This document shows, piece by piece, positions 682 through 29,409 of a DNA stretch of 34,797 nt. The translations under genes were made by a program, and so were the position numbers. Source of the stretch: a virus; the IMG/VR virus record IMGVR_UViG_3300044625_001881, positions 1 to 34,797 of that record; one strand, written 5' to 3'. How positions within the stretch are numbered: position 1 is the stretch's first letter; the number at the start of each line of letters is the position of its first letter. The notes beneath the pieces were generated by a model. That model did no database searches. It worked only from the letters and a program-made list of their open reading frames with translations, and was not told the DNA's origin.

Positions 682-690
682 GTGAATATT

Positions 691-1167
691 ATGTATAGCA
701 AAGTTGATTTTGAACTAGTTTATGAAGTTGAAAGTATAAACTACACTTTTACAGTAAGTGAATTTAATTACTCATTCGAATTCATGCAAAGTGAACTAAA
801 AAAGCAAGGTATGGAAAGTGAGCTTGACGCTGGCTGCTTAAGATTTAATGAATTTACAGAGTTTGCTGAATTAAATAAATATTTAGAAACTAACTTATAT
901 CAAGATTTTTTTGAAACGTATTATAATTCGTATTTAGATGTTCAAGTATTTATTGCCGGTTTGGAAATTGGCATTGCAATAGAAAATATTGAGGATTCTT
1001 ACCAAGGCGCGTACAATTCTGATGGGGAATTTACTGAACATATTACTAATGAATTATATAACTTAAAAGATATTCCAAATTACTTAGTAATAGACTGGGA
1101 AGCCTCATCAAGGGATTTAATGTACGACTTTAGCGAAAATAATGGTTACTATTTTTCAAATTATTAA
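691..1167 (+). CDS. ardA: ArdA-like anti-restriction protein (DNA mimic)
   Basis: The 158-residue product matches the ArdA family, acidic proteins that mimic B-form DNA and occupy type I restriction-modification enzymes soon after DNA entry. The C-terminal half carries the family pattern: an Ala-Tyr-Gln-Gly-type segment (here SYQGAYNSDGEF), then an IDWE...RDLMYDF block, then a terminal GYYFSNY motif. Acidic residues far outnumber basic ones, as expected for a DNA mimic, and the length is close to the usual 160-170. I chose ATG 691, six bases after AGGTG, over GTG 682, which directly abuts the previous stop. Its place early in the early operon suits a protein needed before restriction acts. 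The family assignment is fairly secure; the target enzyme is unknown. Confidence 0.82.
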   Translation: MYSKVDFELVYEVESINYTFTVSEFNYSFEFMQSELKKQGMESELDAGCLRFNEFTEFAELNKYLETNLYQDFFETYYNSYLDVQVFIAGLEIGIAIENIEDSYQGAYNSDGEFTEHITNELYNLKDIPNYLVIDWEASSRDLMYDFSENNGYYFSNY

Positions 1168-7379: not shown

Positions 7380-7501
7380 GAGCAAACAAAATGTTTATGC
7401 AAAATTTAGCAAAATATGTCCTATTTTGGGCAATAATAGCAATTTCTACTTCAGTAGTCTTGCAAACAATTATTTTTTTAATTAAAAGGATTATAGGATG
7501 A
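7376..7501 (+). CDS. Small membrane protein after the endolysin, holin candidate
   Basis: A 41-residue protein starts at ATG 7376 (overlapping the endolysin stop by ATGA) behind AAGGAG at 7361-7366. It has a short basic N-terminus, one long hydrophobic segment at about residues 13-37 (YVLFWAIIAISTSVVLQTIIFLI), and a basic KRIIG end. A single-pass membrane protein coupled to an endolysin is a good position for a holin or an antiholin. It is shorter than most holins. The next gene overlaps it by four bases. Confidence 0.6.
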   Translation: MRANKMFMQNLAKYVLFWAIIAISTSVVLQTIIFLIKRIIG

Positions 7502-7842
7502 AATTTGATTTAACTGGCAAACTGCACAAAGTATCACCAACTCAAGTGATTTCAGAAAAATTTTCAAAACGTGAATTTGTACTTGAGTGCGAAAATGGTA
7601 AGTATAATGAATATGTAAAATGCGAAGTAATTAATGATAATATTAAATTTCTTGAAAATGTAGAAATTGGATATCATATTAATGCGAAATGTTATATTAA
7701 AGGTAGATATTTTCAAAAAAAAGATGGTTCTGAAGGCTTAATTAATTCAATCCAAGCGTACGAAATTAAAACCCGTGCAAATGGACTGACAGAACCTGTA
7801 GAAATATATAGTAATCTTACCGATAATTATGCACCGTTCTAA
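7498..7842 (+). CDS. DUF3127 OB-fold protein, probable ssDNA-binding
   Basis: The 114-residue protein matches the DUF3127 family, found mainly in Bacteroidetes and their phages: an N-terminal FDLTGKLHKVSPTQVISEKFSKREFVLE segment, a central cold-shock/OB-like strand set, an IKGRYFQKKDGSEGLINSIQAYEI strand pair, and an exposed tail. The C-terminus ends in DNYAPF, reminiscent of the acidic-Pro-Phe tail by which single-strand binding proteins recruit partners. A role as the phage single-strand binding protein working with the Sak4-like ATPase and the primase-helicase is likely but inferred. The gene overlaps its neighbours on both sides. Its family also supports the host assignment. Confidence 0.75.
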   Translation: MKFDLTGKLHKVSPTQVISEKFSKREFVLECENGKYNEYVKCEVINDNIKFLENVEIGYHINAKCYIKGRYFQKKDGSEGLINSIQAYEIKTRANGLTEPVEIYSNLTDNYAPF

Positions 7843-8746: not shown

Positions 8747-9448
8747 ATGGAGGCAATAGTAATCGCAACGACAAAATCCAAATGTTTAGATGTAATGCTA
8801 GCGTCAATAGAAAACTATATTCCAATAAATGTAAAATTATATATATTGACAGAAAATTTTATTGATTATAAAGGTTCTCATGTTGTACATCAATTCCCAA
8901 ACCTCGAAACAAACTTCGGTGATGCCTACAATAAAATTATTCATATTGCTTTCGGCTGGCATGACTCTCTTGTTATTTGTAATGATGATATTGTTTTTAC
9001 GCCGGATAGTTGGCAATTTTTGGAAAATGATAAAAATATTCTCAAAAAACATAATGTAAAACTAGGGTATTTATCTTCTAGAACCGATTATGCAAGAGGC
9101 TTTCAAAATATAAGGGCAAAGGCAACCGAAAAGTCACAACTGAACGGCATAAAGTACTCCGACGAGCATAGAATTTTAGCAACGCCAGTAATTTCTCCAG
9201 TTTGTGCATATATAGAAAAAAAGGCTTGGATTGATTTTATGCCAATCAATTTCTTCTCAGATGATATTCAATGTTATGATATGGAAAGAAAGGGTTTTAA
9301 ACATTTTATTTCTTCAAGTTACGTTCACCATGTAGGTTCACAGTCTTTAAAAGAATATTCCGAGGAATACAAAACCGCTGTAAATTGGATTGAAAAAAAT
9401 AGACCGGATTTTATTGATGTTATGACTAATAAATATGGAATTCATTAA
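8747..9448 (+). CDS. GT-A fold glycosyltransferase, early operon
   Basis: The 233-residue protein is read from ATG 8747, six bases after GGAG (8737-8740), rather than ATG 8735. It shows a GT-A layout: an N-terminal nucleotide-binding strand (AIVIATTKSKCLDVMLASI), a metal-binding acidic motif VICNDDI (Asp80, Asp81) after a strand, a conserved FSDDIQCYDMERKGFKHF segment, and a late SSYVHHVGSQS motif with the paired His often seen in family 2 transferases. It would transfer a sugar from a nucleotide sugar. The acceptor could be modified DNA (see the dioxygenase-kinase genes at 27.5-29.4 kb), a virion protein or a host glycan. Expression with replication genes rather than tail genes is mildly in favour of DNA. 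Confidence 0.72.
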   Translation: MEAIVIATTKSKCLDVMLASIENYIPINVKLYILTENFIDYKGSHVVHQFPNLETNFGDAYNKIIHIAFGWHDSLVICNDDIVFTPDSWQFLENDKNILKKHNVKLGYLSSRTDYARGFQNIRAKATEKSQLNGIKYSDEHRILATPVISPVCAYIEKKAWIDFMPINFFSDDIQCYDMERKGFKHFISSSYVHHVGSQSLKEYSEEYKTAVNWIEKNRPDFIDVMTNKYGIH

Positions 9449-17402: not shown

Positions 17403-17865
17403 GAAAAAATTTTAAATCTGTAAGGATGCCGTCAAGGTCTTGCTCCTGCCAAAATTCAGATTCTAAATCAGATTGAATATTTGCTATTAGTTCGCCATTA
17501 TTTACTTTTTTAATATCAATAATAGTTTGCACAAATTTGAATATGGTAGGTATTGTAGATGAATCGATATTTATTACATCAAATAAATTTTTACGTATTT
17601 TTAAATATGAATCTTTTACAAGCTCTCGAAATCTAAAATCATCCATAATACCAACGAATGCATCCGCACCGGCTTGCAAATTTATTTTTTCGGCTAATTC
17701 CGGAATTGCAAAAATACGTTCCATTAATTCTTGTTCGGCTGCTGTTGATGCCCCTTTCGAATTTGCAAGCTCTTGCAGCATTGGTGATACTTTATCATAA
17801 AGAGCCGGCGTTAATAAGTTGTAAATTGGCACTTCATGCGCTGTTCCATTTAAATATAATTTCAT
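17368..17865 (-). CDS. Tail assembly chaperone, short form
   Basis: The 165-residue protein starts at ATG 17865 (ATGA overlap with the methyltransferase stop) and lies just before the tape measure gene, the conserved place of the short tail chaperone (lambda gpG equivalent). It is mostly helical (ALYDKVSPMLQELANS, AAEQELMERIFAIPELAEKI, FRFRELVKDSYLKIRKNLFD) and begins with MKLYLNGTAHEVP, a short strand pair common in such chaperones. It has no virion role but coats the tape measure protein during tail assembly. A probable +1 shift after codon 154 makes a longer form. Assignment is by position, composition and the start-less downstream frame. Confidence 0.65.
   Translation of the reverse strand: MKLYLNGTAHEVPIYNLLTPALYDKVSPMLQELANSKGASTAAEQELMERIFAIPELAEKINLQAGADAFVGIMDDFRFRELVKDSYLKIRKNLFDVINIDSSTIPTIFKFVQTIIDIKKVNNGELIANIQSDLESEFWQEQDLDGILTDLKFFRETVCKRIRIM
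17401..17406 (-). promoter_or_regulatory. Probable +1 programmed frameshift site (TTT-CGC)
   Basis: On the minus strand six T (17409-17404) are followed by CGC. The zero frame reads AAA-TTT-TTT-CGC. A +1 slip of the Phe tRNA in the ribosomal P-site from TTT to TTC restores perfect pairing and brings GCG into the A-site, entering the long start-less frame. CGC is likely a rarely used codon in this AT-rich genome, which would favour slipping. A -2 slip on the T-run would reach the same frame with one extra Phe. Confidence 0.6.
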
Positions 17866-18401
17866 TTTTTTACTCCGAAGAAATATAGGTCACCACCATT
17901 GATTTCAAAGCTATAAAATTTCCATGCTTCTTGAAATCCTTCAATACTTAAAAAATCATTTTCCGTTAAATTACGGTAGTAATTTTTCCAACTGTTTTCC
18001 ATACCTTGTAAAAAAGGAGCCGAGTACCATTTGTCACTTCGCCCCGTTCCATGTTCGTGTCTACCCGTGGTCGCACACGTAAACAAAAAAGCGCCGCCGC
18101 TTTTAAGTATTCTTATAATATTTTTTATTGATTTTTCCCAATGCAAATCATGTTCAAAACATTCGGTGCTAATTACAAAATCATACGAACTATCCGAAGC
18201 ATTATATTCATGAGTAATTGATACAATATCCACATTCGAGCCCTCTGCCAAATCAAGACCACTATAAATGCAGTCTTCGAACAAATATCTATTATTACCA
18301 TTTATATCTAAAGAACCAACGTCCAACACTTTTTTGCCTTTAAAATACGAAGGATATTCGCCATGTATTTTCGTGCAAAAATTTTTCACATCTTCGTGCA
18401 T
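17862..18401 (-). CDS. SAM-dependent methyltransferase inside the tail module
   Basis: The 179-residue protein has the class I Rossmann methyltransferase pattern: motif I KKVLDVGSLD (24-32), a YSGLDL acidic motif II (46-51), YDFVISTECFEHD (73-85), and a motif IV/V region IIRILKSGGAFLFTC (95-109). The 'EHD' segment and the trailing W-Y-S-A-P helix are like methyltransferases that act on sugars or small molecules. There is no Pro-Cys catalytic motif of DNA cytosine-5 enzymes and no (D/N)PPY, so DNA methylation is unlikely. It lies after the major-tail terminator and is coupled to the chaperone gene by ATGA. With the glycosyltransferase nearby, it could cap a glycan on tail or capsid proteins; that is inference. 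Confidence 0.75.
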   Translation of the reverse strand: MHEDVKNFCTKIHGEYPSYFKGKKVLDVGSLDINGNNRYLFEDCIYSGLDLAEGSNVDIVSITHEYNASDSSYDFVISTECFEHDLHWEKSIKNIIRILKSGGAFLFTCATTGRHEHGTGRSDKWYSAPFLQGMENSWKNYYRNLTENDFLSIEGFQEAWKFYSFEINGGDLYFFGVKK

Positions 18402-19014: not shown

Positions 19015-19704
19015 TTATTCCTTTATAAATTGTTTTAATTGCGAAAATGTATTCATTAAATAATGCCAATTTCTTTCACTTTTATCTCTCATCCATTCTC
19101 TTATTAGAAGTTTTGCATTTCGTTCGCATTTTTCTTTCATAACCTCGTCCGAGGTTGAGTACCCTTTGTGATATATCATTATATCGGTATCTGCGAATAA
19201 ATCTTTATGCACTATGTTATCGATTGTTTCGTGGCATATTCCTTCCCAATAAATTCCGTTGTAATTGCGGAAAAGTCTCATATTCGGGTTTATATACCTT
19301 TGTCTAGTTGTTGCGTCGCTATGCTCCCCATAGACGCCAAAAACAGATAGATAAGCACCTTTCACCCCTTGGCTTTCCATAGCTTCTAAATAATCCCATA
19401 ATTCTTGGAAAGGGCTTGCAAATCTTTCGTCTGAGTCCATGTGTAATATCCAATCACCCGTGGCATACTCATCGCATTTATTTCTTAAATAACTAAAATC
19501 AAATTGTGACTCAAAATCATTGTAATTCCATTGCAAGCCAACTAATTCATCGGTGATGCCTATTACTTCAAATTTAGGCTCTATAATATTTTTATCATAA
19601 TTTGTTTTAAGAGCAATAACTTGAATATTTTTTTTTGGTAATGATTTACGCCAGCTCACCAAATCATCGCCATCTTGATACAATACACAAACTGAAAGTT
19701 TCAT
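19015..19704 (-). CDS. Family 2 glycosyltransferase within the virion genes
   Basis: The 229-residue protein is read from ATG 19704, which shares a base with the previous TGA; the TTG before it is less likely. It has the GT2 layout: an N-terminal strand KLSVCVLYQDGDDLVSW, FSYLRNKCDEYATGDWILHMDSDERF with the metal-binding DSDE (90-93), then MRLFRNYNGIYWEGICHETI, a pattern of GT2 enzymes of the 'acceptor-His-Glu' type in bacterial glycosylation. It would transfer a sugar from a nucleotide sugar. It is embedded between tail-completion and major tail genes and so is made late, suggesting glycosylation of capsid or tail proteins. Modified DNA is an alternative acceptor because this genome also carries a base-hydroxylation cassette. 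Confidence 0.8.
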   Translation of the reverse strand: MKLSVCVLYQDGDDLVSWRKSLPKKNIQVIALKTNYDKNIIEPKFEVIGITDELVGLQWNYNDFESQFDFSYLRNKCDEYATGDWILHMDSDERFASPFQELWDYLEAMESQGVKGAYLSVFGVYGEHSDATTRQRYINPNMRLFRNYNGIYWEGICHETIDNIVHKDLFADTDIMIYHKGYSTSDEVMKEKCERNAKLLIREWMRDKSERNWHYLMNTFSQLKQFIKE

Positions 19705-20159
19705 CAATTTCTATAATAAATTGTTCTAAATGTCATCAATGCTATGCCTTTAGTTTCATCATCTGAAAAGGTTACCGCCTGTGAATCAACGAATGTCAAT
19801 GGTGCGAACTCGGTAGCTTCAAACTCAGTTAAATAACCTTCAATCTCTAAATTATGTAATTTATATTCTATAATCTCACATAAATCTGCAAGCGCATTTC
19901 TTAAAGTTGCTTTGTTAGCAATAATTTTTTTAACTTGGCATCCAACTAAAATAAATATTTCTAGTTGACCACGGTTTAAAATTGTACTATCATCCTCGAA
20001 CGTTTCTGACTCACGGGTATCACTACCGGATAAAATTCCTACATAATTAAAATTATATGTATTCCACTTATCTATTTGAACGTGCTCATAAACTTTTAAA
20101 TTTTCTATTGTATTTAGTTGGTCAATAATACTGCTTATTGCCTTTGATTCTCTAGCCAT
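19704..20159 (-). CDS. Tail terminator/completion-like protein
   Basis: The 151-residue protein overlaps the previous gene by 25 bases. Its order of elements (N-terminal helix KAISSIIDQLNTIENLKVYEHV, a strand block NRGQLEIFILVGCQV, a helix NALADLCEIIEYKL and a C-terminal TKGIALMTFRTIYYRN strand) resembles tail terminator or minor tail completion proteins that cap the tail tube and join it to the head. It lies in the right place, after the HK97 gp10-like gene and before the tail tube gene. No exact motif proves it. Confidence 0.5.
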   Translation of the reverse strand: MARESKAISSIIDQLNTIENLKVYEHVQIDKWNTYNFNYVGILSGSDTRESETFEDDSTILNRGQLEIFILVGCQVKKIIANKATLRNALADLCEIIEYKLHNLEIEGYLTEFEATEFAPLTFVDSQAVTFSDDETKGIALMTFRTIYYRN

Positions 20160-23960: not shown

Positions 23961-25970
23961 TTATCTTAGTGGAAATATTTGACATCTACAGTTTATAACA
24001 TTTTTAGGCGATAAGCCAGCGCCGAGCGGCCGTGTTGTTTTTTCACCACCAACTGTGAAGTATCCGTCTGCACCTTGTAATTGACCGTCGGCCGCTTGGT
24101 GTGATGGTCTTACACTACCGTCCCTCATTGACAACCATGCCATTTTTAAATTCTGGCTTTTATAAACAGAATATTGCATTCCCGAAGTGACATTTGATGC
24201 CGTTGTTTGGGCTATGGTATTTACTCTCGAATTACTTAGCGTGTCAAATTTAGACTTTAAAACTTGCTTAAGTTCTTCCTTAGAAGCGCCGGCATTATTA
24301 TTAATTGTAGACCGTAGCTCCTCAACAATTACTCCATAACTATCCGTAATTTTTGCGGAGGTTTCCTGAGTTAAAGTATTTATTTGAGTGGCAACTTCGC
24401 CCCCTAAATTTGCTTTGTTTATGCCTAGCTCTGTTACAATTAAATCAACCGCCCTGTTGCAAGATTCCTGAACACTTTGTTTAAATTCTAAAAAATCTGT
24501 TGGACTTACTTTTAAATCAATAAGCGCCAACTGATTATCGTCTATTTGTTTCACTACTTTTTTTTCTAAATCTTTTATAATTTTATTTACTATTTTACCA
24601 ATGCCGAGTTCGTTCTGCTTTGTTAAATTATCAAAATTACGCCAAAAAATATCCCTAGCTTCCGCAGTTGTTAAAGGGAATTTTTTTTGTTCAAGTGCAA
24701 AATTTGATTGTAAAGTATTTTGTAAATTTGGGCTCACTTCATTTTTTACTGGTAGCAAATTTGACAACGTATCTAATGGAACAAAACCATTGGAAATCAA
24801 AGGAACGTCACCGTCTTTTATAACATCATAACCACGCTCTTTACGTGCATCGTTAATAGTTTTAATTCCCCACTTTAATTCGAACTCCTCACGTTTCATT
24901 TCGGTTTCTTGGTTCACATAAACATAGGGTTCCGACTCAATTATAATGTCTTCTTCAAAGCGTCTAAAATGCCTTGTAAACTCTTCGGCTATATATAATG
25001 CTTCGGGGTCTATTGTGTTTTGCCTAAAAATTGCAAATTGTATTTCTGCCGTTGCTCTATTTTGATATTCACCTGTAAGCATACCCGATGGAACGCCAAA
25101 AATTTGACTAATTTGTGAACGGGATTCTTTTGATACGGCATCATAACTAATTCCCAAATCGCTAGACGGTGGCAACTGTAATCCAAGGCCGCTTCCTAAC
25201 AATGCACGTAATTTATAATCCGGCATTTCCTCATTCCATTGTGCTTTTAATTTTTCCCACACATCCGCATCAACTTGGTCTTGGTGAGTGGCAATTAATG
25301 GAGGAACGGCATTATTACTAAAAAACCTATGTAAAAACTCACTCACCTCAACATCAATATTAGCATAATCAAGAGCAGCCGTAACCAAACCAGTCCCAAA
25401 CACATTCATTCCAATTATTTCATCGGGCTTATAACTAGGATGCACTTTTGCAAGATGTATCACTTCATTCTCTGGGATAGTAATATTGCCATCATTTACA
25501 CTTTGGTAAATATATCCCTGAACAAAATTATCACCACCAAGTAAAACTCTTGTTCGTGTCGGGTTCAATACCCACATTTGGAGGGGTACTTCATAGCCGA
25601 GTGTCGGTGTCCATATAAAGCAATTACCATTAATCGATAGCCAATTTTCAATGAAAGTCCATAACTGGGAATGAGTAAAAAACGGGTTCGGGTTCTTTAT
25701 TAATTTATTTGTCCAATGGTCGTTGCTGAGCTCGTCCTTACTATATGCCTTCTCTTTATAGGCATTAAATTTAACCGAGCTTAGAGCATTTGCCCTTAAT
25801 TGCAAGCAAGCATAGACGGTCCCTCGCAATGACATTTGCAGTTCGTTTCCAGTTGGCAAACTAATTGTAGATTTATAGCCTACGCTCGAACTATATGGTT
25901 TTTGATTTCTTTTTGCCGTTGGCAGTATTGCATCGGCAATTTTTTCACGTATTTTATCAAGTCTGCTCAT
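23961..25970 (-). CDS. Portal protein fused to a MuF head-morphogenesis domain
   Basis: The 669-residue protein starts at ATG 25970, overlapping the terminase stop (ATGA). Residues about 1-400 are an HK97-family portal: LQLRANALSSVKFNAY, HSQLWTFIENWLSINGNCFIW, MWVLNPTRTRV, and SQIFGVPSGMLTGEYQNRATAE. A helical linker follows. The C-terminus (about 560-669) is a MuF/SPP1 gp7-like domain with MAWLSMRDGSVRPSHQAADGQ and an ending NVINCRCQIFPL, matching the His and Cys-Arg-Cys of that family. In most phages these are two adjacent genes. The fusion means one MuF domain per portal subunit, on the inside or rim of the head vertex. Confidence 0.85.
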   Translation of the reverse strand: MSRLDKIREKIADAILPTAKRNQKPYSSSVGYKSTISLPTGNELQMSLRGTVYACLQLRANALSSVKFNAYKEKAYSKDELSNDHWTNKLIKNPNPFFTHSQLWTFIENWLSINGNCFIWTPTLGYEVPLQMWVLNPTRTRVLLGGDNFVQGYIYQSVNDGNITIPENEVIHLAKVHPSYKPDEIIGMNVFGTGLVTAALDYANIDVEVSEFLHRFFSNNAVPPLIATHQDQVDADVWEKLKAQWNEEMPDYKLRALLGSGLGLQLPPSSDLGISYDAVSKESRSQISQIFGVPSGMLTGEYQNRATAEIQFAIFRQNTIDPEALYIAEEFTRHFRRFEEDIIIESEPYVYVNQETEMKREEFELKWGIKTINDARKERGYDVIKDGDVPLISNGFVPLDTLSNLLPVKNEVSPNLQNTLQSNFALEQKKFPLTTAEARDIFWRNFDNLTKQNELGIGKIVNKIIKDLEKKVVKQIDDNQLALIDLKVSPTDFLEFKQSVQESCNRAVDLIVTELGINKANLGGEVATQINTLTQETSAKITDSYGVIVEELRSTINNNAGASKEELKQVLKSKFDTLSNSRVNTIAQTTASNVTSGMQYSVYKSQNLKMAWLSMRDGSVRPSHQAADGQLQGADGYFTVGGEKTTRPLGAGLSPKNVINCRCQIFPLR

Positions 25971-27142
25971 ATCAAAATTTGGGGTGATTTACGAATTGCG
26001 GAAAATGCATGACCGATAGCGTCAATGAAATCGTCGTGCCTATCTTGTGGAGTCCCAGTAAAACTAAGTAATTCTTCAGTATATTCCGGAGCTAAGTGGC
26101 TAACATGGTAGACAAGCCCTTGCTCGTATCTTGCTTCCACAGGCTGGAACCGTGTAATTTTATCACGTGTTGAAACGATGCCAATAACATTCATTCTTGT
26201 ATTTCTTTTTAGTTCCTGAACCATGTATGCTTGAGCCTGATTTGCTTCCACGGCGACTACCTTCGCCTTCCATTTTTGTTCCATTGCTATTATTTCAGTA
26301 CCTATTTCGACAAAACTCCAACGGCCTCGTTTCGCTTCAACAACAACTATTTCATTCAAGGCTGTAATTCCAATTACAACTATAGCAGTATAATCAGCCG
26401 TTTCTTTTTGCGATATTGCTAAATCCACTCCAATATAGTGATTTAAACATTGTTTTTCGTTGCTAATTTTAATCCAGTCTCTTTTTATTTTAGCGGCATC
26501 CCTATCAACATATTCCGCAAGATACTCCTGAGCAAAAACAACTGACGGCAAAACTACTTTTTGACGCTCAATTTCATTATAAGAAATTTGACCGCCTTGG
26601 TATGTAGTGTAATGAAACGACTTCCAGTCATTATGTGTATTGCTTAAGTTATCTAAGTAATTAAAATAATTTTTTCCCTTTGGAGTAGAGAAGAAATATG
26701 CATCGCCCTCACTATCGCCAAGGGTTGCTGATATGGACTCTTCCCATGCCGGTTCGGCATTTATACAATGCGCAAACTCGTCGCCAATATATCTGTCGTA
26801 ATGATTGCCACGCAAAGCATCGGCACGCCAGATGCCACTCAAATCAAGAGTGGAACTATTTAATGTAATTTCTCCCCATTTGCATTCCGCTCCTAAAGGG
26901 GTGAAAAATCTTACGGCCTCTTTGTATCTATTTTTTAAATCCACATTCGCTGGAACAGTATAAAGAACACTTTTATTTTTTGACTCTAACATTTTTTCTA
27001 AAGCAAGTGCAAAGGCAAGATAAGATTTTCCGAAACGACGTCCGCACCTTATTACATTAAAGCGATTCCGCTGCTTCAAAATTTCCATCTGTTTTTGATG
27101 GGGTTTTATCACTATGTTCTGAACCATCGTTTCCATTTGCAT
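25967..27142 (-). CDS. terL: Terminase large subunit
   Basis: The 391-residue protein is the packaging motor. The ATPase half has Walker A CGRRFGKS (33-40), Walker B RYIGDEF with Asp121/Glu122, and a FFSTPKG coupling motif (150-156). The nuclease half has Asp240 in YIGVDLA, Glu299 in VAVEAN, and Asp370/Asp371/Asp374 in RHDDFIDA. The start is ATG 27142, giving an overlap of 86 bases with the small subunit in another frame; ATG at 27136 or 27127 are also possible. It is directly followed by the portal gene. The family call is firm; packaging type (cos or pac) cannot be read from sequence alone. Confidence 0.92.
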   Translation of the reverse strand: MQMETMVQNIVIKPHQKQMEILKQRNRFNVIRCGRRFGKSYLAFALALEKMLESKNKSVLYTVPANVDLKNRYKEAVRFFTPLGAECKWGEITLNSSTLDLSGIWRADALRGNHYDRYIGDEFAHCINAEPAWEESISATLGDSEGDAYFFSTPKGKNYFNYLDNLSNTHNDWKSFHYTTYQGGQISYNEIERQKVVLPSVVFAQEYLAEYVDRDAAKIKRDWIKISNEKQCLNHYIGVDLAISQKETADYTAIVVIGITALNEIVVVEAKRGRWSFVEIGTEIIAMEQKWKAKVVAVEANQAQAYMVQELKRNTRMNVIGIVSTRDKITRFQPVEARYEQGLVYHVSHLAPEYTEELLSFTGTPQDRHDDFIDAIGHAFSAIRKSPQILI

Positions 27143-27434
27143 CGCCCCAGATTATAACTTGTTTTACTTCTTGTTTTGCTTCTGTCTTTGGTGAATATAC
27201 ATACTTCATCAAAACATCAAAAGCCCTTGTCGAATCGTTATCTTTTCCATTTGCTGCTATTTTTGCTTGTCTTGTTACGATACCCTCTAACAAAGTTATG
27301 CCTCGTTCATTAGTTTGCGAAAACACTTCAGCAATGACTTCTTTTAAATCTGGAATTAATTTTGGCCTTCCATTTGGGTTGCCTGTTTGACCTTTCTTCC
27401 ATTTATGTTTTACTATGTTTTCAGGATTCGGCAT
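27057..27434 (-). CDS. Terminase small subunit-like (DUF5681 motif)
   Basis: The 125-residue protein carries the KKGQTGNPNGRPK motif (about 13-25) typical of the DUF5681 group that sits directly upstream of terminase large subunits, followed by a helical body (DLKEVIAEVFSQTNERGITLLEGIVTRQ) and an acidic C-terminus. It would bind phage DNA and present it to the large subunit. It overlaps the large subunit gene by 86 bases in another frame. Identification as the small subunit relies on the motif and the neighbour. Confidence 0.75.
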   Translation of the reverse strand: MPNPENIVKHKWKKGQTGNPNGRPKLIPDLKEVIAEVFSQTNERGITLLEGIVTRQAKIAANGKDNDSTRAFDVLMKYVYSPKTEAKQEVKQVIIWGDANGNDGSEHSDKTPSKTDGNFEAAESL

Positions 27435-27484: not shown

Positions 27485-28300
27485 TCACCCAGCCTTTTCC
27501 GTTTCGTTGCTTACAAAGGCTTTTAGAGGGTAAAAAATAAGTGAATTACGGTATCCTCTTTCACTATTTGTTTTTATTGGTGTCACGCCATGTATATTCA
27601 TCCACGCTGGGTATACTAGCATGCTATTGTCGCATTGGTCAATAGTTATTCCATAATCTGGTATATTCAAGTCGCCACCGGTTGCATCGTTTCGTTTCGT
27701 TATTATTACATTTACTGCTCCAATGATATTACCGGCATCACGATGGTAATCAGCATTAATATTATAATTAGAAATACTTGATGTAAACAAGTTTCCGAAC
27801 CGCCACTTTTTATCTACATTTTTAAATAATTCAACTTGTTTTGCATACTGAGCCGGCATTAATTCTCTTATAATGTTTTCCGATTCTATAGCTAGCATCC
27901 ACATCGCTTTTATAAAAGTTGCCGCCGATGGTACGAGATGCACGCTGCTTCTGGATGGATAAGGTCGCCTCATGTGAGGTTTCGGGGGTACTGAACCGAT
28001 TATAGTGCTAAATTGAGTTACTAGGTTTTTACCGGCTTTTAACCTGTTTAATTTATCTTGTTTATTACCTTGGGGACCCCGACTCATTTCTTGCTTTGGA
28101 ACGTTTTTAGATAATAATTCGGCATTGGCTATGTCCGCAAGTTTGCAAGCCCTGTCATTCATTTTTTTTAAATAAAAACCAACGGGGGTTCCTTCCTCGT
28201 TATAAAAAATACAATCTTCTAATATGTTTGGGACTATATTGCCACATTTATCACCAATTTTAACAATATGTTCTTTTTTTTGCAAAAGTAATTTTTTCAT
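27485..28300 (-). CDS. TET/JBP-like 2-oxoglutarate/Fe(II) dioxygenase
   Basis: The 271-residue protein has the motifs of a double-stranded beta-helix dioxygenase: an iron-binding His186-x-Asp188 in DYHRDAGN, the distal His237 in NIHGVTPI, and Arg251 in YRNSLIFY for 2-oxoglutarate. The strands between them (GAVNVIITKRNDATGGDLNIPDYGITI) match the phage branch of the TET/JBP family, with the 'H-R-D-x-x-N' and 'G-G-x-L-x-(I/L)-P-x-Y-G' pattern. TET/JBP enzymes hydroxylate the methyl group of 5-methylcytosine or thymine within DNA. Its ATG overlaps the kinase stop (ATGA), with a ParB-like gene upstream and the terminase downstream, a neighbourhood reported for DNA base hypermodification in phages. 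A different substrate cannot be excluded. Confidence 0.75.
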   Translation of the reverse strand: MKKLLLQKKEHIVKIGDKCGNIVPNILEDCIFYNEEGTPVGFYLKKMNDRACKLADIANAELLSKNVPKQEMSRGPQGNKQDKLNRLKAGKNLVTQFSTIIGSVPPKPHMRRPYPSRSSVHLVPSAATFIKAMWMLAIESENIIRELMPAQYAKQVELFKNVDKKWRFGNLFTSSISNYNINADYHRDAGNIIGAVNVIITKRNDATGGDLNIPDYGITIDQCDNSMLVYPAWMNIHGVTPIKTNSERGYRNSLIFYPLKAFVSNETEKAG

Positions 28301-28803
28301 GATTGTTTACTGCATAAATTATAAGCAATATTCCAAAATTCACTTTTCACATCCTCAAGGCTTTTATTATTATCAATGACAATGCGTTGAGCAATTCCCT
28401 TCAAATTTTTCATAAGATTAAGATGGTTTTTTAAATTTTCTATATATGTTTTTGGATTAATTATGCCACCTCGTTTCGAAATTCTTTTAGCATTATTTTC
28501 AAAACTTGTTTTTAAATAAACGATAATTGGAACATGGCTTTTTTTAATTCTTAAAAAATCAACATATTTTGTATAATAAACACCAGCGATAATAATGTTT
28601 TTATCTGCATTTTCATTAATATAGTTAAAGACACTTTCTTTATCAATATTAGATATTGAATCCGCCCCGTTTATTTTTTTTCCTAAAATCCAAATATTAC
28701 TGCCAATATGCAATAAATATTCTTTTTTTTCCAATACCGGTAAATCAATAATAGAACTTTTACCTACGCCAAAATTCCCGCATAAAAAAATAGCAACGCT
28801 CAT
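28297..28803 (-). CDS. P-loop kinase, candidate hydroxymethyl-base DNA kinase
   Basis: The 168-residue protein has a Walker A motif GNFGVGKSS (9-17), a NGADSIS segment (45-51), a NIIIAGVYY strand acting as a Walker B-like element, and a lid region ENNAKRISKRGG. This is the nucleotide-kinase fold. Similar small P-loop kinases, with 'G-A-D-x-I/L', accompany phage base-oxidation genes and phosphorylate 5-hydroxymethyl groups in DNA before further substitution. It is translationally coupled to the TET/JBP-like gene (ATGA) and follows the ParB-like gene. A general nucleotide or polynucleotide kinase is the alternative; the coupling favours the base-modification role. Confidence 0.65.
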   Translation of the reverse strand: MSVAIFLCGNFGVGKSSIIDLPVLEKKEYLLHIGSNIWILGKKINGADSISNIDKESVFNYINENADKNIIIAGVYYTKYVDFLRIKKSHVPIIVYLKTSFENNAKRISKRGGIINPKTYIENLKNHLNLMKNLKGIAQRIVIDNNKSLEDVKSEFWNIAYNLCSKQS

Positions 28804-28830
28804 AATAATATTTTTTTAATTATATGAAAT

Positions 28831-29409
28831 TTATTTTTTTGTTTTTCGCAAGGCCTCCAAAACTAGGCCTCCAATATAAATTTCGTCTTCTCTTAGTATT
28901 TTTATTAATTCTTGCGCCTCGGAGTAGTCACCAAGTTCGAATTCAATTTGTATTGCTTTTTTTACCCCATTTGCCATTTCGTTAATTTCTTCATCTAGGT
29001 TCTCATCTTCTAGTATGCTGTAATCAATATCATCAATTTTGAAATTGGGTATATCCAAGCCCCAATCTGTTAATTCGAGGCTATCCCATTCATTTGCCAG
29101 CGCATCCCAATCCCAGTCGCCATAATTCACATTATCTTTGATTAAAAATTGTGTTTTTTGCTCCTCAGTCCAATCATCGGCTAATATTATAGGCAATTCT
29201 TTGAATCCAAGTTCCTTTGCAACTTTAAATCGCATATTTCCCCCTAGAACCACAAACTTATCGTCCTTATCTGTAAAAACGACTAAGGGTCTTTTTTGCA
29301 GCATTTCTGGAAAATCTTCTAAAGATTTTTTTAACGAATTATATTTGCTGTCCTTTAATATTCTAGGATTTTTTGGATTAGCCTTTATTCTTTCAATTTT
29401 AACTAACAT
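28831..29409 (-). CDS. ParB/Srx-domain protein of the modification cassette
   Basis: The 192-residue protein starts at ATG 29409 behind AAGGAG. The N-terminal domain shows the ParB/sulfiredoxin-like pattern: VKIERIKANPKNPRI, a LVVF strand, and LGGNMRFKVAKELGF (55-69), where the Gly-Gly-x-x-Arg matches the ParB 'G-x-x-R' phosphate-binding loop. It continues with TEEQKTQFLIKDNVNYGDWDWDAL and an acidic C-terminus without a methyltransferase domain. Free ParB-type proteins of this kind are neighbours of phage DNA modification genes and may guide or nick DNA using nucleotide hydrolysis. Here it heads a run of kinase, dioxygenase and terminase, so a role in DNA modification is likely but inferred. 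Confidence 0.7.
   Translation of the reverse strand: MLVKIERIKANPKNPRILKDSKYNSLKKSLEDFPEMLQKRPLVVFTDKDDKFVVLGGNMRFKVAKELGFKELPIILADDWTEEQKTQFLIKDNVNYGDWDWDALANEWDSLELTDWGLDIPNFKIDDIDYSILEDENLDEEINEMANGVKKAIQIEFELGDYSEAQELIKILREDEIYIGGLVLEALRKTKK

What the first reader, a model, noticed from the sequence alone, without database searches (positions are those of the whole stretch)
27485..29409. TET/JBP-like dioxygenase, P-loop kinase and ParB-like genes in one cassette beside the terminase
Three adjacent late genes read as a post-replicative DNA base-modification pathway. They are a ParB-like protein (28831-29409), a P-loop kinase (28297-28803) and a 2-oxoglutarate dioxygenase with His186-x-Asp188, His237 and Arg251 (27485-28300). 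Kinase and dioxygenase overlap by ATGA, so they are coupled. Comparative-genomic work has linked phage TET/JBP oxygenases with ParB proteins, kinases and glycosyltransferases. This genome also has two GT-A-like transferases (8747-9448, 19015-19704). It carries no recognisable hydroxymethyl-pyrimidine synthase and no cytosine-5 methyltransferase. That fits in-place oxidation of thymine, or of host-made 5-methylcytosine, followed by phosphorylation and perhaps glycosylation. The exact final base is unknown and may be new.
Basis: partly seen in the sequence, partly recalled or inferred. Interest (0 to 1): 0.85.

Follow-up and report, generated by a model that had tools for sequence, protein, structure and literature searches.

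The report
Phage TET–kinase cassette with swappable slot
A phage carries a three-gene set that most likely oxidises thymine in its own DNA and then phosphorylates it, and in related phages the middle gene is repeatedly exchanged for unrelated DNA-decorating enzymes while its neighbours stay the same.

Summary
27485-28300 is a Tet_JBP oxygenase (Pfam above cut-off, confident TET-fold model, active site invariant). 28297-28803 is a P-loop kinase whose closest named folds include phage kinases such as the SP10 5-hmdU DNA kinase. 28831-29409 is ParB-like. Kinase and oxygenase genes overlap by ATGA.

TET/JBP genes with ParB and a kinase are already known, so the combination is not new. What comparison adds: 73 of 75 related viral loci have ParB upstream of TET. 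The slot between them holds unrelated alternatives: glycosyltransferase, FkbM methyltransferase, amino-acid:DNA transferase plus kinase, or kinase alone. Close relatives (flanks up to 98% identical) carry non-homologous slot genes, so the tailoring gene is swapped as an allele. Kinase alone recurs: the window plus 12 loci with a second, distantly related kinase; no transferase relative was found in the records tested.

Thymine is the likelier substrate: the same oxygenase group partners with thymidine-hypermodification enzymes, and 25 of 27 records lack a cytosine-5 methyltransferase. Best reading: T to 5-hydroxymethyl-dU to its phosphate, possibly the final base. Glycosylation is not supported here. 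The final base is unproven.

The parts
28831..29409 (-). ParB-like protein (192 aa), first gene of the cassette
   Evidence: ParB_N PF02195 30.7 bits, above cut-off; ParB upstream of TET in 73 of 75 TET-scan loci
28297..28803 (-). P-loop kinase (168 aa), KIN3 lineage, occupying the variable slot; proposed 5-hydroxymethylpyrimidine DNA kinase
   Evidence: all 29 KIN3 rows (23 distinct records) lie beside TET; hhalign to M6/ViI-type kinases prob 75%, E 2e-5, controls 0.1-3.7%; AF2 pLDDT 91, Foldseek matches phage kinases including SP10 5-hmdU DNA kinase
27485..28300 (-). TET/JBP-family 2-oxoglutarate/Fe(II) dioxygenase (271 aa)
   Evidence: PF12851 above cut-off; H186, D188, H237, R251 invariant in 43 sequences; AF2 pLDDT 93 and TET-family Foldseek hits
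28297..28300 (-). ATGA stop/start overlap of kinase and TET genes (translational coupling inferred)
   Evidence: sequence
27057..27434 (-). small-terminase-like gene (DUF5681) following the cassette
   Evidence: PF18932 43.7 bits; a short gene then a terminase-sized gene follows TET in most relatives
25967..27142 (-). large terminase
   Evidence: PF17289 and PF03237 above cut-off

Best explanation
The three genes form a minimal DNA base-hypermodification cassette. After replication the TET/JBP oxygenase hydroxylates the 5-methyl group of thymine in phage DNA to 5-hydroxymethyl-dU (enzyme family shown; substrate inferred), and the kinase phosphorylates that hydroxyl (inferred from homology, fold and context). 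ParB probably binds or tracks DNA and directs the enzymes or coordinates modification with packaging (inferred only from its constant presence). The modified DNA would resist host nucleases. The phosphate is either the final decoration or the handle for a transferase not yet recognised; I lean slightly to final, because kinase-only is a recurrent allele that alternates with a glycosyltransferase. The kinase occupies a slot where phages exchange tailoring enzymes while keeping ParB and TET.
For: TET identity. Kinase: hhalign to M6/ViI-type kinases prob 75%, E 2e-5, against 0.3% for the reversed profile, 0.3% for T4 dNMP kinase and 3.7% for the Sak4 protein; shared G..GxDx[LI] motif in 16/16 KIN3, 8/8 M6-type and 51/60 KIN5, absent from T4 gp1; Foldseek TMq 0.72 to the Klebsiella phage KpS110 kinase and 0.65 to SP10 5-hmdU DNA kinase versus at most 0.60 in the PDB rows shown. 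Pathway: kinases of the two lineages sit beside ADDT, amidotransferase, FAD-like, PLP or GNAT genes, and ADDT-kinase fusions of about 500 aa exist. Substrate: C5-MTase absent from 25/27 and thymidylate synthase from 27/27 related records. Slot exchange: 79 locus pairs with TET at least 80% identical but different slot class; L088 vs L145 have ParB 94%, TET 92% and downstream 98% nt identity with unrelated slots. Kinase-only recurs; ADDT relatives in 0 of 10 kinase-only records but 15 of 15 other kinase records in the same run; kinase-only KIN5 median dN/dS 0.155. Published precedent: 5-hmdU kinase treatment alone made SP8 DNA resistant or partly resistant to 16 of 20 tested Type II enzymes (PMC7653180).
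Against: No biochemistry on any member. Kinase-to-M6 homology is moderate, and KIN3 has Ala or Thr where M6-type and KIN5 kinases have the Glu of an 'EG' motif. Records may be fragments, so a transferase could lie in missing sequence; the window has no terminal repeat. In the KIN3 lineage the window is the only clear kinase-only example, so loss of ADDT is possible there. ParB function is unknown. Key papers (Iyer 2013, Lee 2022, Burke 2021) could not be read here.
Confidence: 0.68

Rival explanations
1. The oxygenase acts on host-made 5-methylcytosine and the kinase on 5-hydroxymethylcytosine, giving sparse, site-specific cytosine modification.
For: TET2, CMD1 and NgTet1, the nearest solved structures, act on 5mC; two of 27 related records carry a C5-MTase match.
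Against: 25 of 27 records lack a C5-MTase. The same TET group is joined to ADDT, PLP and kinase genes of the thymidine pathway. Depending on host 5mC would make modification sparse and host-dependent.
Confidence: 0.17
2. A variant of the best explanation: the kinase makes only an intermediate, and a further enzyme, encoded elsewhere in this phage or by the host, replaces or extends the phosphate.
For: 27 of 29 KIN3 rows have ADDT beside the kinase (the exceptions are the window and L118, which is cut off just upstream); in M6/ViI-type pathways phosphorylation precedes amino-acid transfer (general knowledge).
Against: No ADDT relative in the window or in the other kinase-only records tested; the window shares almost no protein with the KIN5 kinase-only phages beyond ParB and TET (weak capsid-region, metallophosphoesterase and DUF3127 similarity only), so no common downstream enzyme was found; kinase-only alternates with glycosyltransferase on nearly identical backgrounds.
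Confidence: 0.4
3. The window cassette is a decayed ADDT-kinase-TET cassette and the lone kinase is a remnant.
For: It is the only clear kinase-only example in the KIN3 lineage.
Against: All residues invariant in KIN3 are intact; only a short gap between ParB and kinase, with no room for a leftover gene; ATGA overlap with TET retained; kinase-only KIN5 alleles are under purifying selection.
Confidence: 0.1
4. The kinase acts on free nucleotides and the co-location is incidental.
For: General nucleotide-kinase fold; PDB hits include gluconate, dTMP and adenylate kinases.
Against: All KIN3 rows and most KIN5 rows lie beside TET or ADDT; kinase-ADDT fusions; closer to phage 5-hmdU DNA kinases than to T4 dNMP kinase.
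Confidence: 0.08

Closest known systems
TET/JBP oxygenases (Pfam PF12851) in phages
   Same: Same family, catalytic residues and fold; ParB, kinase and Tet-like neighbours already reported for Rhodococcus phage Tonitrus (PMC11955845)
   Different: No aGPT-PPlase/ADDT relative found in this record; kinase alone between ParB and TET
Thymidine hypermodification pathway of phages M6, ViI and SP10
   Same: Related kinase (fold, motif, profile); related cassettes carry ADDT, PALP-type PLP, FAD-like and GNAT genes
   Different: A TET oxygenase would make the hydroxymethyl group in DNA; none of 27 related records has a thymidylate-synthase-type enzyme; the window lacks ADDT
Prochlorococcus phages MED4-184 and MED4-117 (also P-HS2 for TET)
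   Same: Same ParB-slot-TET-small gene-TerL order; TET 48% identical
   Different: Slot holds an FkbM-type methyltransferase instead of a kinase
TET-associated glycosyltransferase (TAGT, PF20691) systems
   Same: TAGT is the commonest occupant of the same slot
   Different: Absent from the window

Membership tests
Tet_JBP (PF12851) | Match above curated cut-off | tested here: met
   39.7 vs 34.9 bits
Tet_JBP (PF12851) | HxD...H iron site and 2OG-binding Arg | tested here: met
   H186, D188, H237, R251 invariant in 43 sequences
Tet_JBP (PF12851) | TET-type fold | tested here: met
   Top 26 Foldseek PDB hits are CcTet, TET2, CMD1, NgTet1
Tet_JBP (PF12851) | Oxidation of a 5-methylpyrimidine in DNA | not testable with these tools
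   needs biochemistry
5-hmdU DNA kinase (M6/ViI/SP10 type) | Sequence and fold relationship | tested here: inconclusive
   hhalign 75%, controls 0.1-3.7%; SP10 kinase TMq 0.65; no tblastn match in phage records
5-hmdU DNA kinase (M6/ViI/SP10 type) | Linked to hypermodification genes | tested here: met
   Lineage beside ADDT and TET; ADDT-kinase fusions in the KIN5 lineage
5-hmdU DNA kinase (M6/ViI/SP10 type) | Phosphorylates 5-hmdU in duplex DNA | not testable with these tools
   needs assay
M6-type amino-acid thymidine hypermodification | ADDT (PF18724 or relative) present | tested here: not met
   No ADDT-profile match in the record
M6-type amino-acid thymidine hypermodification | dUMP hydroxymethylase (PF00303) present | tested here: not met
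Glycosylated 5hm-base systems | TAGT-type glycosyltransferase in the cassette | tested here: not met
   No TAGT-profile match in window ORFs
ParB/Spo0J | ParB_N domain | tested here: met
   weak PDB matches to ParB proteins
ParB/Spo0J | Partition or CTP-clamp function | not tested
   -

The most novel reading that the evidence does not exclude
A 'serotype-like' DNA-decoration locus: ParB and a TET oxygenase are a fixed chassis that makes 5-hydroxymethyl-dU, and phages exchange the tailoring gene between them by recombination in the flanks to change the group on the base. The kinase-only allele would make a phosphate-bearing base, 5-hydroxymethyl-dU phosphate, as the final natural modification, and the FkbM allele perhaps a methyl ether.
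Probability: 0.38. Interest if true: 0.85.

Novelty: new variant of a known kind. Interest (0 to 1): 0.66.

Why it matters
If right, phage base modifications vary by allele at one locus, which would help explain why hosts keep many modification-dependent nucleases and would offer swappable enzymes for writing chosen groups onto thymine in DNA. A base ending in a phosphate would, to my knowledge, be a chemically new natural final nucleobase (one library search for '5-phosphomethyl' with phage gave no relevant paper). Cultured phages with the FkbM allele (MED4-184 and MED4-117) make the slot idea directly testable.

Tried and rejected
Single-sequence PDB searches for kinase and TET gave nothing useful; alignments were needed. 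tblastn of the kinase against phage records gave no match. A downstream enzyme common to the window and the KIN5 kinase-only phages was sought and none found. The two GT-like genes were considered as decorators: one has no assigned family, the other resembles GT2/SunS and lies among tail genes, so neither is linked to the cassette. Host 5mC as substrate was kept as a rival. The 123-tip TET tree used loose slot labels, some from contigs without a visible ParB, so only its general result (at least 37 label changes; shuffled mean 63.8) is used; the strict evidence is. One error found: L190 was scored kinase-only because its ADDT ORF overlaps the ParB end by more than the script allowed; one search shows ADDT there, so I count 13 kinase-only loci, not 14, and 42 ADDT+kinase, not 41. 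The negative ADDT search had no positive control in that run; one search used the same query with positives. Iyer 2013, Lee 2022 and Burke 2021 are not in the library, so priority for the slot-swapping observation could not be checked.

Full report
What is there. The kinase stop and dioxygenase start share ATGA. The record is 34,797 bases, a virus record with no terminal repeat found, so it may be incomplete.

The dioxygenase is a TET/JBP enzyme. Pfam Tet_JBP scores 39.7 bits against a cut-off of 34.9. H186, D188, H237 and R251 are invariant in 43 relatives. A profile search of solved structures finds only TET2 (E 2e-5) and CMD1 (E 9e-4). The AlphaFold2 model (pLDDT 93.1) has CcTet, TET2, CMD1 and NgTet1 structures as its first 26 Foldseek hits, before FTO and AlkB.

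The kinase. By sequence alone it is a generic P-loop kinase with no match in phage records. With 15 relatives its profile aligns to M6/ViI-type phage kinases at probability 75%, E 2e-5; controls gave 0.3% (reversed profile), 0.3% (T4 dNMP kinase), 0.1% (terminase) and 3.7% (Sak4 protein). A motif G..GxDx[LI] is in 16/16 of its lineage (KIN3), 8/8 of the M6 type and 51/60 of a second lineage (KIN5), and absent from T4 gp1. I identify M6 gp54 and its ViI relative as the 5-hmdU kinase type from general knowledge; their records call them 'terminase small subunit'. The model (pLDDT 91.3) matches phage kinases best, including SP10 '5-hmdU DNA kinase' at TMq 0.65, against at most 0.60 in the PDB rows shown. 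KIN3 differs in having Ala or Thr where the other two groups have the Glu of an EG motif.

The cassette is a fixed chassis with a variable slot. Of 75 such loci with at least 1.4 kb upstream, 73 have ParB upstream of TET within 4 kb. Strict classification of 150 loci, including those fetched through the kinases (which enriches kinase types), gives glycosyltransferases 46, ADDT plus kinase 42, FkbM methyltransferase 26, kinase alone 13, empty 2, unclassified 21 (with L190 corrected). Pfam names the main occupants TAGT, FkbM, ADDT, GATase_6 and PALP-type PLP enzymes. In the TET-scan loci alone the commonest slots are TAGT (36) and FkbM (25). Prochlorococcus phages MED4-184 and MED4-117 have the same order with an FkbM-type gene in the slot.

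The slot is swapped between close relatives. Seventy-nine locus pairs have TET proteins at least 80% identical but different slot classes; in all 25 pairs printed the slot shows no DNA similarity. Examples: L088 (TAGT) and L145 (kinase alone) have ParB 94%, TET 92% and 1.6 kb downstream 98% identical; L062 (FkbM) and L066 (TAGT) have 89%, 92% and 89%. The pairs come from separate metagenomes, so a single chimeric assembly does not explain them. The slot is lower in GC than both flanks in 80-93% of loci by class, and the window's kinase is 26.2% GC against 33.9% for ParB and 36.5% for TET. A loosely labelled TET tree needs at least 37 label changes. Exchange by recombination in the flanks is inferred.

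Kinase alone is a real allele. It occurs with two distantly related kinases, KIN3 in the window and KIN5 in 12 loci (L025, L136-L146), in phages that otherwise share almost no proteins with the window. An ADDT profile finds a relative in all 15 tested kinase records with ADDT or fused ADDT and in none of the 10 kinase-only records tested in the same run, including the window and records of 29.8, 24.3 and 20.7 kb; nine more records were negative without a control in that run. Several records are short fragments. Kinase-only KIN5 genes have median dN/dS 0.155, similar to their TETs at 0.147. In other records ADDT and kinase are one polypeptide of about 500 aa.

Which base. Because slot alleles swap on nearly the same TET, the TET substrate should be the same for all alleles (inference). 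ADDT, PLP and kinase genes belong to pathways that build on 5-hmdU (general knowledge; Tonitrus is read the same way in PMC11955845). A C5-methyltransferase match is absent from 25 of 27 records and thymidylate synthase from all 27. Thymine is therefore favoured, with 5mC kept as a rival. A published experiment shows that phosphorylation of 5-hmdU alone is useful: about 20% phosphorylation of SP8 DNA gave resistance or partial resistance to 16 of 20 Type II enzymes, whereas unphosphorylated SP8 DNA resisted only about 8% of enzymes tested (PMC7653180). So a kinase-only cassette could protect DNA without further steps.

Limits. ParB's role is unknown. Nothing here was tested biochemically. The broad idea is known from earlier work, some of which could not be read here. 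The additions are the ParB-slot-TET architecture, the allelic exchange of unrelated tailoring enzymes, and the recurrent kinase-only allele.

Noticed in passing
window 27485-28300; phrog_6059; NC_020847, NC_020857: PHROGs and several RefSeq records label this TET/JBP family 'queuine tRNA-ribosyltransferase', which the profile and fold evidence contradicts.
   Followed up: yes
L106:13686-14249 (M6 gp54), L108, L110: M6/ViI-type phage kinases are annotated 'terminase small subunit' in RefSeq.
   Followed up: partly
L147:3966-5459, L149, L153, L155: Kinase fused C-terminal to an ADDT-like domain, about 500 aa, in several cases next to a PALP-type PLP gene.
   Followed up: partly
L182:2980-4976: Two TET genes close together beside a kinase in a 64.8 kb record.
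   Followed up: no
window 682-1167: Matches PHROG anti-restriction families (E 4e-9), so the phage may carry a second anti-restriction function.
   Followed up: no
window 19015-19707 and 17862-18401: GT2-like (SunS-like) gene and a SAM methyltransferase among tail-region genes.
   Followed up: partly
window 7498-7842: DUF3127 protein; one weak relative in a KIN5 kinase-only record, L222.
   Followed up: no
window 28297-28803 and slots of related loci: Slot genes are lower in GC than both flanks in most loci.
   Followed up: partly
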